Shown one piece after another: positions 44,065-59,207 of a stretch of 64,000 nt of DNA (positions are counted from its first letter, which is position 1; each line of letters begins with the position of its first letter). The translations under genes were made by a program, and so were the position numbers. The DNA is from Glandiceps talaboti (Eukaryota; Hemichordata; Enteropneusta; Spengelidae). A model generated the notes under the pieces. That model was not told where the DNA came from. It did not search any database and was given only the letters and a program-made list of their open reading frames with translations. The stretch is taken from NCBI RefSeq assembly GCF_964340395.1, contig NC_135551.1:10198879-10262878 (forward strand). Direction: 5' to 3'.

Positions 44065-47000
44065 ATGACGTCAATGGTATTGCTGCCACTCCTGGCCGCT
44101 GTGCTCTTTGCAAGACCATTTGCATCAGGTATGTTTAACATAAAAAGACATTGTATGCACTACTAGTATACATGTATATAGTGATACAGTCACATAAACG
44201 TTCTTTATAGATAGTTCATAAAACACAATTCCAGTGTTTTGCGATCGTTTTAGTTAGGAAGTTATGGCTCTCCTAAAAGAGCTGTCAACATGCCTTTTAA
44301 AAAGCTCTGCGGTCATTAACAGTTAGAATGGCAATTTGTGACATTATGCATGTTGTAGCAACTCAGTGTTCACTTTAAGCTTATGTGTAAATCGTATTGG
44401 GGACGTTCACTAGCACTGACGGCTTTCTGAAGGTGAACGCTTTTTTTTGATAGTATGTTGAGGTAACTTTAGAGTTCAGCAACTTGATTGGTTTAATCGG
44501 TTAGTATTTCCTAGGAAGAATTTTGCTTAATATTATCTCTTATCCTGATTCCTGGTTTTGTGCTTGCTTTCCGGGGACCACTCCTGCCATCGCATCGCCA
44601 CATCACTGTTGGGCACATAACCAGTTGCAATTGGTGAGTACTACACACAAGTAATGATACCTGAAAACGCGACGTTGGCGTTGCAAGCTGACCATTTTTT
44701 TTAATGCGTCATAACTTGCAGCAAAACGTATTTACGGACGTTGCCTTCAATCTGAGATAACTATAGATTCACCAATTTGGACGGATAAACACCATTTGTT
44801 CTGTTAATTAACATGTAATTGTTTAGTTACTGCTACAGTTTTCAACGGCACAGTGAATATTTGCTTCTTTTTCCTCAAACTGTTTTTACCGTTCAAAGCT
44901 AGCTGCAACTGAACATTTGAATTTGTTGTTAGATACAGTAACTTACTCGAAATATTACGCATCCTGAAAAGTATTTAATCATCTGTAGAAGAACGTATAT
45001 TGTTGTGGCTGTATACATTATAAATAAAATCGAATTGATTTTTACGTCTGCATCCAAAAATCAGAGCCATCAACGACGATCACGTAGCAAACCTGTTATT
45101 ACAATACTAATGGATAAGATCAACCACTGATTAGCATGTACAGAATCGGATTACTGGTATTTTAACACTTTTCAGTGAATATATTACGGTTGTCTGATCG
45201 AAAAATGATACTGCAATTACAAACTAGTGCAGTTTTAACGTGGTGACAGATTCAAAACCGAGCTTTCGCCGACGATTTAAACTTGTCATTACGCCACCTA
45301 CGGATACAATGGGTTTTTTAAAATAAGTAACTGACACATTTTTAGTAAATGTACAGCTGGTTACCTGATGAAAAAGTAATCCCAGTTGCAGCTAGCAGTT
45401 TTAAAGTCATGTCTTGATAATAATGACTGTTTATCCTGTCCATCAAACCAGGTCCTACATTGATTGGTGTTACCGATGAACATTCATTGGTGACAAGATC
45501 CGTCGGTTTTGGCGGGAAATGGAGTCCTGTTGCAAACAGTTGCTGCGTAACAAGCGTTGCTGTAATGAGTGACGGTTCATTGGTTGGTGTAGGCGTAGAG
45601 GGCGCTCTTTACACAAAGACGTCACTGACTACTGGTGAATGGACAGGCCCAATTGAGGGCAGCTGTTGCGTTACGGATGTCTCTGTCATGTCAGATGGCA
45701 CAATCATTGCTGTGTCAGATAAGAGTAAATTGATGTATCGTTCAGACCTGACAAGTAAGTGGGTCACTGCAAAGAAGCCTAGAGGAGTGGTTATGGTAGA
45801 TGCGTACAACGATGGCAGAATTATTGGCGTTTCAACGAGTGGTACCATGAAAGTACGAGATGATCTGAACAGTCCCTGGGAGACACTGAAAAGCAAGAGT
45901 TTCAAGGCCTCTGATCTCGCTGTCCAACCAAATGGTAGAATACTTGGTATTCAAAAGGGAACGTGTGGCGTGTATGTCTATAACGATGATACTACTGAAT
46001 GGACTTCTGAGCTAACTGAGAGTGAATGTGTAATATCGATCACTGCTCCCGGTAACTCTGGTAAGTTGAAGACTGCTTAGTCATGATTGATTTAAGAATT
46101 CCTAATTCTAAATAACGACAAGATATACACATCTAACAAATGTAGATTTAATTGTCTTTACATGTGCATTGAGCAACGGAAGCTGTAATTTAACCAATAT
46201 CTAATCATTTCTCATATTTATATACGTTTGCAAACAAACAAACCAACAAACAAACAAACAAACAAACAAACAAACTAGCTAACAAACGTACACACACTTG
46301 CACATGCATGCATGCATGCATACATACATACATACATACATACATGCTTACGCATACATACATACATACATACATACATACATACATACACATACATACA
46401 TACATACACACACATACATACATACATACATACATACATACATACATACATACATACTCGTGAGGTTCAATATAACGTCAACAAATCACTGTGTTATCAT
46501 TTCAGATGCTTTGGAAGAACCAGTGACTACCCCTGCACCAGAACCAGTAGTAACTGAAAAGGTAGAAACTCCAGAACCACCCACTCAGGCACCACCCACT
46601 CAGGCACCACCCACTCAGCCGCCAGCCACTCTGCCACCAGCCACTCTGCCACCGGAGCCTGAACAGGAGGACGAAAGTATGTCTTTACACTTTAATATCA
46701 GAATAATTAGCTTGCATTATATTGAACGCTTTGATGTATGTATCATAGAGCATGGTTAAAATGGCGTACCAAGTCACAGGGGAAGGGTTAAATCGAATAT
46801 TGAATGGATATAGGGCTGGCTACATAAAGTAAAAGGTGTATTCATGCACAAAAACAGTTCGACATGACCCATTGTACTTCATCATGTTATTTTCCGACGT
46901 GTCAGTGAACGGTATTTCTGGTACTAAGAGCTTTATTAAAATGGGAGAAAGAAGATCGGTGATTGTAAACACTCACACACGTGTTATCTTTTAAGTAAAA

Positions 47001-59000: not shown

Positions 59001-59207
59001 GGTACATTATGGAGCCGTCCTGGTGTGCAAGGAACTTGGACCAATGTTGATAGAAGTGGTGTCGTCTCGGAGATCACCATTGGACCTGATGGTAACATTA
59101 TTGGTATTGGTACTTCGTGTGGCCTGTTTGAAAGAGAGAGTTATACTTCAGCCTGGCAGGGTGAAATAGCGAGTAGCAGATGTGTGATAGCTGTTACCTA
59201 TGCATAA
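44065..59207 (+). CDS. Secreted six-propeller tectonin/tachylectin-like protein
   Basis: Fourteen exons, every junction in phase 1: 44065-44128, 45452-46060, 46506-46676, 47342-47938, 48260-48292, 49058-49651, 51243-51275, 52083-52676, 53347-53379, 53597-53644, 53968-54561, 58117-58149, 58365-58412, 58618-59207 (stop TAA). The total of 4041 nt is in frame (1346 aa). Exon 1 is a signal peptide (MTSMVLLPLLAAVLFARPFA). Six domains of about 198 aa each have five repeats of about 40 aa of the type GVGxxxxLWTRxxxxGxWxGPIxxSCCVxxVxVLxDGxII. That is the pattern of a five-bladed propeller like tachylectin-2 and tectonin lectins. Domains are joined by a Pro/Thr-rich linker, 11-residue linkers and a 16-residue Cys-rich linker. 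The symmetric phases fit exon shuffling. An extracellular sugar-binding or defence role is inference. The single-transcript model is unproven. Confidence 0.65.
45452..46060 (+). CDS. Propeller domain 1 (most diverged)
   Basis: The exon encodes GPTLIGVTDEHSLVTRSVGF, then two cysteine-paired blades (PVANSCCVTSVAVMSDGSLV, GPIEGSCCVTDVSVMSDGTI). The later blades lose the pair (KKPRGVVMVDAYNDGRII). Blade 5 keeps TCGVYVY and SECVIS. It is the least like the other five, so it is probably the oldest or the least homogenised. Confidence 0.75.
46230..46458. repeat. (CAAA)n and (CATA)n microsatellites
   Basis: CAAA units at 46230-46275, then CATA/CACA units at 46304-46457, in propeller-gene intron 2. 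Confidence 0.95.
46506..46676 (+). CDS. Pro/Thr-rich linker exon
   Basis: 57 codons, phase 1-1: EEPVTTPAPEPVVTEK, then three APPTQ-type and two PPATL repeats, ending PEPEQEDE. It has the character of an O-glycosylated stalk between propellers 1 and 2. Confidence 0.7.
47342..47938 (+). CDS. Propeller domain 2
   Basis: 199 codons with five blades. Blades 1-3 have STCCVLSMTV, NSCCVTDVTSL and NSCCVKSISTL; blade 4 has NGVVSDIT in place of the Cys pair; blade 5 has TTCGLWERE and NSRCVVSAS, ending VDKC. Confidence 0.8.
48419..48597. repeat. (GTCT)n then (CT)n microsatellite
   Basis: GTCT to 48458, then CT with two interruptions to 48595, in the intron before propeller 3. Confidence 0.95.
48598..48890 (+). 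repeat. Intronic repeat, copy 1
   Basis: Contains GAATGAAGAAAATATTGGAG, GCCAGCGCCAGTCATATCAA and TGTTTTGACTCATATTTC, all recurring in order in the next intron at 49843-50095. Confidence 0.7.
49058..49651 (+). CDS. Propeller domain 3
   Basis: 198 codons. Blades 2-5 (TDINAAWQGPIAGSCCVTDV, GLNLWTRPGVQGTWSGPVPN, GTWTNVDGSGVVSDITIGPD) are almost identical to domains 4-6 at DNA level. It ends VDKC like domain 2. Confidence 0.8.
49770..50095. mobile_element. Hairpin MITE fused to intronic repeat, copy 2
   Basis: The arms TTTTTCTTCGTTCAGCC near 49770 and GGCTGAATGAAGAAAAA near 49870 flank about 80 bp, including inner AAGGAAAATACCCC and GAGTATTTTCC. The sequence after the right arm matches 48640-48890. 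A splice-acceptor-like CAG inside the left arm starts a short frame that is not believed to be an exon. Confidence 0.6.
50096..51242. other. Long intron before propeller 4
   Basis: AT-rich. No exon other than the 33-bp linker at 51243-51275 was recognised. Confidence 0.5.
51280..51354. repeat. (AT)n microsatellite
   Basis: About 37 TA units immediately after the linker exon 51243-51275. Confidence 0.97.
52083..52676 (+). CDS. Propeller domain 4
   Basis: 198 codons beginning VLYGVGTDNQIYSRGGIQGT. It differs from domain 5 at only a few positions (HTCCVKNVVVMKDG against STCCVKNMVVLKDG). Blade 5 ends SSRCVTAVSFVETR, having lost the closing Cys of domains 2 and 3. Confidence 0.82.
53597..53644 (+). 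CDS. 16-residue Cys-rich linker exon
   Basis: A phase 1-1 mini-exon encoding ENTLSCSTSCGRELCE, between linker PTIAKPEIQDA (53347-53379) and propeller 5. An identical-type exon is at 58365-58412. Three cysteines in a CxxxCxxxxxC spacing. No known domain is assigned. Confidence 0.65.
53968..54561 (+). CDS. Propeller domain 5
   Basis: 198 codons, nearly identical to domains 4 and 6 from TDINAAWQGP onward. It ends SSRCVIAVSFVETR followed by the donor GTAAGT. Confidence 0.82.
55252..56325 (+). repeat. 58-bp minisatellite inside the TTAA element
   Basis: About 18 copies of ACTAGTTGTTGTACTTATTG, TTACGGAATTCAACGGTAGT, CTGAAAACACACGAAAAT. Monomers differ by a few substitutions, and two carry an extra ATAGCT-type insertion. 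Unlike the CSTF2 arrays, this monomer does not match the element's own ends. Confidence 0.95.
57449..57735 (-). CDS. Transposon-borne first exon resembling P2X7-tail-domain proteins
   Basis: A minus-strand frame from ATG 57735 (or the better internal Met at about 57675, MVELEGQLHNPFSPEPDVEY) runs to a consensus donor GTAAGT at 57448. Notable parts are GVIQPYSFKPAASSSDSSSD, an acidic Ser/Glu stretch and the end PQRLNDTA. Many invertebrate proteins with a P2X7-like cysteine-rich tail domain have the order LPYxFEP, acidic stretch, RLxxTxWCxCGxC. The resemblance is from memory. The expected cysteine part would be in the next exon and was not found within the element. Function unknown. Confidence 0.4.
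58618..59207 (+). CDS. Propeller domain 6 and C-terminus
   Basis: Starts TLYGIGTDNQIYSRSALQGT, near-identical to domains 4 and 5. Blade 5 reads GTSCGLFERES, and the frame closes with CVIAVTYA and TAA. No extra C-terminal tail, anchor or GPI-like signal follows, so the protein should be soluble. Confidence 0.82.

What the first reader, a model, noticed from the sequence alone, without database searches (positions are those of the whole stretch)
44065..59207. Secreted protein of six tandem five-bladed propellers with adjacent-cysteine blades
Seen: a signal-peptide exon and six near-200-residue domains, each with five GVGxxxxLWTR...SCCV...DG repeats. Blades 1-3 of each domain carry a Cys-Cys pair; blade 4 lacks it (GVV); blade 5 has TCGL and RCV. 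Known: tachylectin-2 and tectonins are five/six-bladed lectins of innate immunity. Inference: adjacent Cys pairs placed blade by blade could form vicinal or inter-blade disulfides, giving a rigid multivalent extracellular lectin. I know of no described family with this architecture.
Basis: partly seen in the sequence, partly recalled or inferred. Interest (0 to 1): 0.75.

Follow-up and report, generated by a model that had tools for sequence, protein, structure and literature searches.

The report
Six-propeller secreted lectin, paired cysteines
An acorn-worm-like genome carries a gene for a probably secreted protein of six five-bladed propeller domains, in which some blades bear two neighbouring cysteines that evolution almost always keeps or drops together, hinting at a small built-in ring near the place where a related lectin holds sugar.

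Summary
Thirteen phase-1 exons at 44065-59207 (+) splice on paper into 1335 aa: a probable signal peptide, six propeller domains D1-D6 and linkers. AlphaFold models of D4 and D1 are confident five-bladed propellers (pLDDT 96.2, 94.3).

The inter-blade disulfide idea is weakened. Outside hemichordates, 402 blades of 77 proteins hold 214 CC, 179 neither, 1 single Cys and 8 gaps. In 17 of 75 CC-bearing proteins the propeller has no other cysteine. The pair behaves as a unit, most simply a vicinal disulfide. In hemichordates two further cysteines probably clamp the ring closed.

CC lies in the link where tachylectin-2 carries Lys37/Trp40, its sugar site (register uncertain by about two residues; sequence similarity not significant). 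I propose a multivalent extracellular lectin whose disulfide rings floor sugar pockets. Disulfides, sugar binding and exon chaining are inferred. CC-bearing relatives are named in hemichordates, a jellyfish and a chytrid; most are unnamed. New variant of a known kind.

The parts
44065..44128 (+). Exon 1: start codon and probable signal peptide (MTSMVLLPLLAAVLFARPFAS), phase-1 donor
   Evidence: signal peptide judged by eye, no predictor run
45452..46060 (+). D1 propeller exon; 6 Cys; CC in repeats 1 and 2 only; 48% identical to Ptychodera flava P0005
46506..46676 (+). Pro/Thr-rich linker exon (mucin-like)
47342..47938 (+). D2 propeller exon, 8 Cys
49058..49651 (+). D3 propeller exon, 8 Cys; middle part close to D4-D6, ends diverged
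51243..51275 (+). Short linker exon, 33 bases
   Evidence: AG/GT, phase 1; no RNA evidence
52083..52676 (+). D4 propeller exon, 8 Cys; AlphaFold2 model pLDDT 96.2, pTM 0.91
52166..52171 (+). D4 CC pair of repeat 1 (residues 28-29); those of repeats 2 and 3 are at 52286-52291 and 52406-52411
52583..52585 (+). D4 Cys167 (TCGL), proposed partner of Cys188 at 52646-52648 (RCV): closure disulfide
   Evidence: pairing inferred
53347..53379 (+). Short linker exon, 33 bases
   Evidence: no RNA evidence
53597..53644 (+). Short linker exon, 48 bases, three cysteines (LSCSTSCGRELCE)
   Evidence: no RNA evidence
53968..54561 (+). D5 propeller exon, 8 Cys, 97.3% nt identity to D4
58117..58149 (+). Short linker exon, near-copy of 53347-53379
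   Evidence: no RNA evidence
58365..58412 (+). Short linker exon with three cysteines, copy of 53597-53644
   Evidence: no RNA evidence
58618..59207 (+). D6 propeller exon, 8 Cys, ends in TAA

Best explanation
One gene encodes a secreted, string-like lectin of six five-bladed tectonin/tachylectin-type propellers. Supported by computation: the open phase-1 exon chain, the five-bladed fold of D1 and D4, and the behaviour of CC as a unit. Inferred: each CC closes on itself as a vicinal (adjacent-residue) disulfide in the link from the outer strand of one blade to the inner strand of the next. This ring gives a small non-polar patch in the region where tachylectin-2 puts Trp40, and each blade has a conserved Trp like tachylectin-2's Trp75, so the pair would floor a sugar pocket between blades. 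Cys167 and Cys188 would form the one conventional disulfide per propeller and lock the N-terminal strands to the C-terminal strand that completes the first blade. With six domains, 17 CC sites and flexible linkers, binding would be weak per site and strong in sum, suited to mucus or to clumping microbes with repetitive surface sugars. Three cysteines in each of two linkers could cross-link chains.
For: Gene model. Confident five-bladed models; tachylectin-2, fish-egg lectin and tectonin-2 among the fold matches of D4. CC nearly all-or-none: of 456 blades in 82 sequences, 240 CC, 196 neither, 11 second-Cys-only, 1 first-Cys-only, 8 gaps; outside hemichordates 214 CC, 179 neither, 1 single, 8 gaps. 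Second set, not used to build the profile: 106 blades in 15 proteins, 41 CC, 47 neither, 2 single (both in P0094), 16 gaps. 17 of 75 CC proteins have no other propeller Cys. All 11 second-Cys-only blades are hemichordate repeat 5; 10 of them have the TC cysteine in the same repeat, and the eleventh (P0028) instead has a Cys in a loop of its first repeat. Tachylectin-2 Lys37/Trp40 set GlcNAc specificity and Trp40/Trp75 line the acetyl pocket (PMC4483166, passages seen); these residues sit in KGGW and DNW; our Trp 20, 60, 100 and 140 are invariant in 43 sequences. A vicinal disulfide touches arabinofuranose in 1wd4 (PMC12102755, passages seen). Hemichordate relatives join this propeller to astacin (P0009), CBM14 (P0005) or PAN (P0001) domains.
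Confidence: 0.55

Rival explanations
1. The cysteines form a chain of inter-blade disulfides that staples the ring for rigidity.
For: Eight cysteines per D2-D6 domain is an even number, and adjacent residues in a strand would point to opposite sides (inference).
Against: D1 lacks the repeat-3 pair but keeps the others. P0009 has one CC plus the closure pair per propeller, and P0007 and the fragment P0074 have one CC and no other cysteine. Pairs appear in any blade, not only in neighbouring ones.
Confidence: 0.12
2. The CC pairs are vicinal disulfides, but the protein is structural: a mucus or cuticle component or a protein-binding scaffold, with the pair only stiffening the link between blades.
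For: Chitin-binding CBM14 in the Ptychodera relative, PAN and astacin in Saccoglossus relatives, a Pro/Thr-rich linker, and a fold that scores about as well against protein-binding propellers such as LRP6 and NHL domains as against lectins.
Against: The CC link coincides, within about two residues, with the tachylectin-2 sugar site, and the nearest solved chain by sequence is a lectin, tectonin-2.
Confidence: 0.25
3. The CC pairs act as redox switches or metal (copper, zinc) sites rather than as permanent disulfides.
For: Bacterial PQQ-dependent alcohol dehydrogenases are said to carry vicinal disulfide bridges (PMC13384848, one passage), and a lone CC can bind soft metals (recalled). Asp72, three residues after the second pair, is invariant in the 8 sequences.
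Against: No such invariant acidic residue or His follows the pairs of repeats 1 and 3 within a few residues, and the protein is probably secreted. Metal binding was not tested.
Confidence: 0.1
4. The locus is several tandem genes or partly pseudogenised repeats, not one protein.
For: Recent duplications (D4-D6 at 94-97% nt identity), introns up to about 3.6 kb, no RNA evidence.
Against: All exons of the model are open and phase 1, with one start exon and one terminal stop; dN/dS is about 0.24-0.33 among D3-D6. A Saccoglossus protein has two such propellers in tandem (P0009).
Confidence: 0.12

Closest known systems
Tachylectin-2 (1tl2), five-bladed GlcNAc/GalNAc lectin of horseshoe crab
   Different: 47-residue repeats with a GGW motif in the link and no CC in the stretch seen; single domain; no significant sequence similarity
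Tectonin family, Pfam PF19193 (Laccaria tectonin-2 5fsb/5fsc, carp fish-egg lectin 4ruq/4rus)
   Same: Closest in sequence: tectonin-2 is the top PDB match of our profile, E 1.8e-06; D1 scores 30.2 against a cut-off of 30; similar DG-x-x-G-V repeats
   Different: Six blades in the solved lectins (recalled), five here; no CC in the aligned stretch of tectonin-2
Toxoplasma subpellicular-microtubule structure 9ya3, chain K
   Different: Part of an intracellular microtubule complex; 15% identity; its cysteines were not seen
Giant-virus propeller proteins (Gaeavirus A0A3G5A3I2, Harvfovirus A0A3G5A4X4, Edafosvirus A0A3G4ZT42)
   Same: Query TM-score 0.83-0.85; Gaeavirus 29% identity
   Different: Uncharacterised; their cysteines were not seen
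Sugar-contacting vicinal disulfide of 1wd4 arabinofuranosidase; vicinal disulfides of PQQ dehydrogenases
   Same: Adjacent-cysteine ring, in one case touching a sugar (PMC12102755, passages), in the other in propeller enzymes (PMC13384848, one passage)
   Different: Features of enzymes; here the pair is repeated blade by blade

Membership tests
Five-bladed beta-propeller | Five repeats folding into a closed ring | tested here: met
   Models of D4 and D1 with pLDDT 96.2 and 94.3, 20 strands in D4; D2, D3, D5, D6 by 66-97% identity to D4
Tectonin (Pfam PF19193) | Score above the Pfam gathering cut-off (30 bits) | tested here: inconclusive
   D1 30.2 passes; D3 28.8 and D6 25.6 fall short; D2, D4 and D5 gave no Tectonin match at E up to 1
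Tectonin (Pfam PF19193) | Six blades as in tectonin-2 and fish-egg lectin (recalled, not checked in a call) | tested here: not met
   Five blades here
Tachylectin-2 | Significant sequence similarity | tested here: not met
   Not listed by phmmer with D4 at E up to 1 nor by profiles at E up to 1 and 5; hhalign probability about 0.4%
Tachylectin-2 | Same fold | tested here: met
Tachylectin-2 | Lys37/Trp40-type sugar motif in the outer-to-inner strand link | tested here: not met
   CC or G-V in that region; alignment register uncertain by about two residues
Sugar-binding lectin | Binds a glycan | not testable with these tools
   Needs protein and a glycan array
Vicinal disulfide protein | Adjacent cysteines gained and lost together, without needing a third cysteine | tested here: met
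   with three single-Cys exceptions outside hemichordates (P0017 one, P0094 two)
Vicinal disulfide protein | S-S bond between adjacent residues | not testable with these tools
   Model coordinates are not returned

The most novel reading that the evidence does not exclude
The adjacent-cysteine ring is a blade-by-blade sugar-binding device: a class of five-bladed propeller lectins, present in acorn worms, a jellyfish, a chytrid and many unnamed metagenome proteins (perhaps of giant viruses and bacteria), in which a vicinal disulfide replaces the aromatic residue as the pocket floor and can be switched on or off in single blades. The six-fold array of this gene would be the largest animal example seen here.
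Probability: 0.35. Interest if true: 0.75.

Novelty: new variant of a known kind. Interest (0 to 1): 0.5.

Why it matters
If right, it defines a subclass of propeller lectins by a chemical feature that can be read from sequence, predicts where the ligand sits, and gives blades that differ in CC versus GV within one domain, so the role of a vicinal disulfide in sugar binding becomes directly testable. The scatter over animals, a chytrid and many unnamed metagenome proteins also raises the question of gene transfer or of a shared target such as a microbial polysaccharide.

Tried and rejected
Inter-blade disulfide staples: rejected as the main reading. Descent from tachylectin-2 itself: not supported by sequence. 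Window genome: the genome search did not complete, so copy number and organism stay open. IMG/VR: no relative with D4, the PAN-family alignment or P0082; each scan used 2 to 6 short patterns and reaches close relatives only. Bacterial and archaeal genome contigs with P0015: none. Phage records with P0035: none. 1tl2 is absent from the 50 rows shown by Foldseek for D4 and by VIA for D1; neither is proof of a different fold.

Literature: no library paper holds 'hemichordate' with 'tectonin' or 'tachylectin-2' (2 papers held two of the three terms, neither with 'hemichordate'); none holds 'vicinal disulfide', 'propeller' and 'lectin'; none holds 'fish egg lectin', 'tectonin' and 'disulfide'; four hold 'tachylectin' and 'vicinal', listing only; one holds 'vicinal disulfide' and 'beta-propeller' (one passage). 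A wider search listed 25 of 111 papers, none of the 25 with 'tectonin'. Searches were seen as listings, apart from passages of PMC12102755, PMC2880987, PMC4483166 and PMC12203525. The 2017 survey of vicinal disulfides (PMC5500257) and the tachylectin-2 structure paper (PMC1171314) are not held. A first script to cut blades failed and was replaced.
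Full report
What is there. The window holds a plus-strand gene at 44065-59207. I placed thirteen exons by splice signals and frame: exon 1 (44065-44128, start codon and hydrophobic leader), six domain exons (D1-D6), one Pro/Thr-rich linker and five short linkers. All twelve introns of the model are GT-AG and phase 1, and the joined frame runs 1335 codons to a stop at 59207. No transcript was available, so chaining is inferred; further small exons in the introns are not excluded. 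The signal peptide was judged by eye.

The host is most likely a hemichordate. D4 is 59% identical to a Saccoglossus kowalevskii protein (P0001), D1 is 48% identical to a Ptychodera flava protein (P0005), and a Saccoglossus astacin carries two related propellers (P0009). The window's own genome could not be searched.

The domains. Each domain has five repeats of about 40 residues. D2-D6 carry CC in repeats 1-3, GV in repeat 4, and two single cysteines in repeat 5, eight in all; D1 has six, lacking the repeat-3 pair. The product has 52 cysteines: 46 in domains and three in each of two linker exons.

What the CC pair does across relatives. A blade profile found 456 blades in 82 sequences (81 database proteins and the gene; 29 of the gene's 30 blades). 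At the two columns: 240 CC, 196 neither, 11 second-only, 1 first-only, 8 gaps. Excluding the gene and four hemichordate proteins leaves 77 proteins with 214 CC, 179 neither, 1 single, 8 gaps. Also leaving out 46 long proteins (34 of them with a precomputed PAN domain, by my count of the table) leaves 31 proteins with 84 CC, 82 neither, 1 single, 5 gaps. Fifteen proteins found later and not used in the profile gave 106 blades: 41 CC, 47 neither, 2 single, 16 gaps; both singles are in P0094, in blades with another cysteine nearby. Fisher's test on the 77-protein set gave p = 5.7e-115, but the blades are related and the figure is no true probability. In 17 of 75 CC-bearing proteins the propeller has no cysteine besides the pairs; three of these 17 (P0059, P0074, P0080) show only three blades. 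P0007 has one CC and no other cysteine in the whole protein. A pair that comes and goes whole and needs no third partner is most simply a vicinal disulfide. Metal binding or free thiols remain possible.

The exception fits a pattern. All 11 second-only blades are repeat 5 of hemichordate domains. Ten have the TC cysteine in the same repeat; the eleventh, P0028, lacks it but has a cysteine in a similar loop of repeat 1, which adjoins repeat 5 in the ring, and others further N-terminal. This fits a conventional disulfide that clamps the closure, Cys167-Cys188 in D4.

Where CC sits. In tachylectin-2, Lys37 and Trp40 set GlcNAc specificity, and Trp40 with Trp75 line the acetyl pocket (PMC4483166, passages only). 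One search shows these as K37-G38-G39-W40 and the Trp of DNW. Our CC lies in the same link, and our Trp 20, 60, 100 and 140 are invariant among 43 sequences. Profile alignments put CC at or within about two residues of GGW, but with no statistical weight. One vicinal disulfide is known to touch a sugar (1wd4, PMC12102755, passages), and they are mentioned for PQQ alcohol dehydrogenases (PMC13384848, one passage). The pocket-floor mechanism is therefore reasoned, not shown.

How the array arose. D4, D5 and D6 exons are 94-97% identical in DNA. D4 and D5 share flanking intron in a 1202-column match at 95%, and the linker exons before D5 and D6 lie in a 535-column match at 96%. D3 is 88-89% identical to D4-D6 overall; against D4 and D5 its middle 45-base stretches are 91-100% (one at 82%) and its ends 67-82%, while D4, D5 and D6 are 98-100% alike over stretches 4-11. 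That mosaic suggests gene conversion of the central blades; it was not tested formally. dN/dS among D3-D6 is about 0.24-0.33 from the values, consistent with purifying selection.

Relatives. CC-bearing relatives are named in hemichordates, the jellyfish Rhopilema and the chytrid Rhizoclosmatium; the named Micromonospora protein has the repeats without CC. Most others are unnamed metagenome proteins, many with PAN domains. Giant-virus proteins lead the viral fold library, so some of these may be viral, but three IMG/VR scans found none.

Verdict. A well-formed gene model; a known fold; a cysteine device that I did not find described in the library searches and that is conserved far beyond this gene. 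Interest 0.5.

Noticed in passing
49058-59207: D3-D6 are a mosaic: central blades nearly identical, ends diverged, as expected from gene conversion.
   Followed up: partly
53597-53644 and 58365-58412: A duplicated 48-base linker exon encodes three cysteines (an odd number), possibly for cross-linking chains.
   Followed up: no
about 55248-56323: A tandem array of about 58-base units in the intron between D5 and D6.
   Followed up: no
6794-11377 (+): Exons of a probable cleavage-stimulation-factor CSTF2 gene: RRM_1 (E 5.1e-12) and CSTF2_hinge (E 6.8e-13).
   Followed up: partly
25248-25823 (+): Exon encoding a glycolipid transfer protein domain (GLTP, E 1.6e-37).
   Followed up: no
long proteins among P0026-P0081 (database proteins): A large unnamed metagenome family joins a CC propeller (mostly CC in two or three of five blades) to PAN domains; in those printed, C-terminal hydrophobic segments are visible by eye. 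Giant-virus proteins lead the viral fold matches of D4.
   Followed up: partly
P0082 (database protein): An unnamed 1379-aa protein with an N-terminal membrane-like segment (by eye) and 25 detected blades, 15 with CC, so tandem CC-propeller arrays are not unique to this gene.
   Followed up: partly
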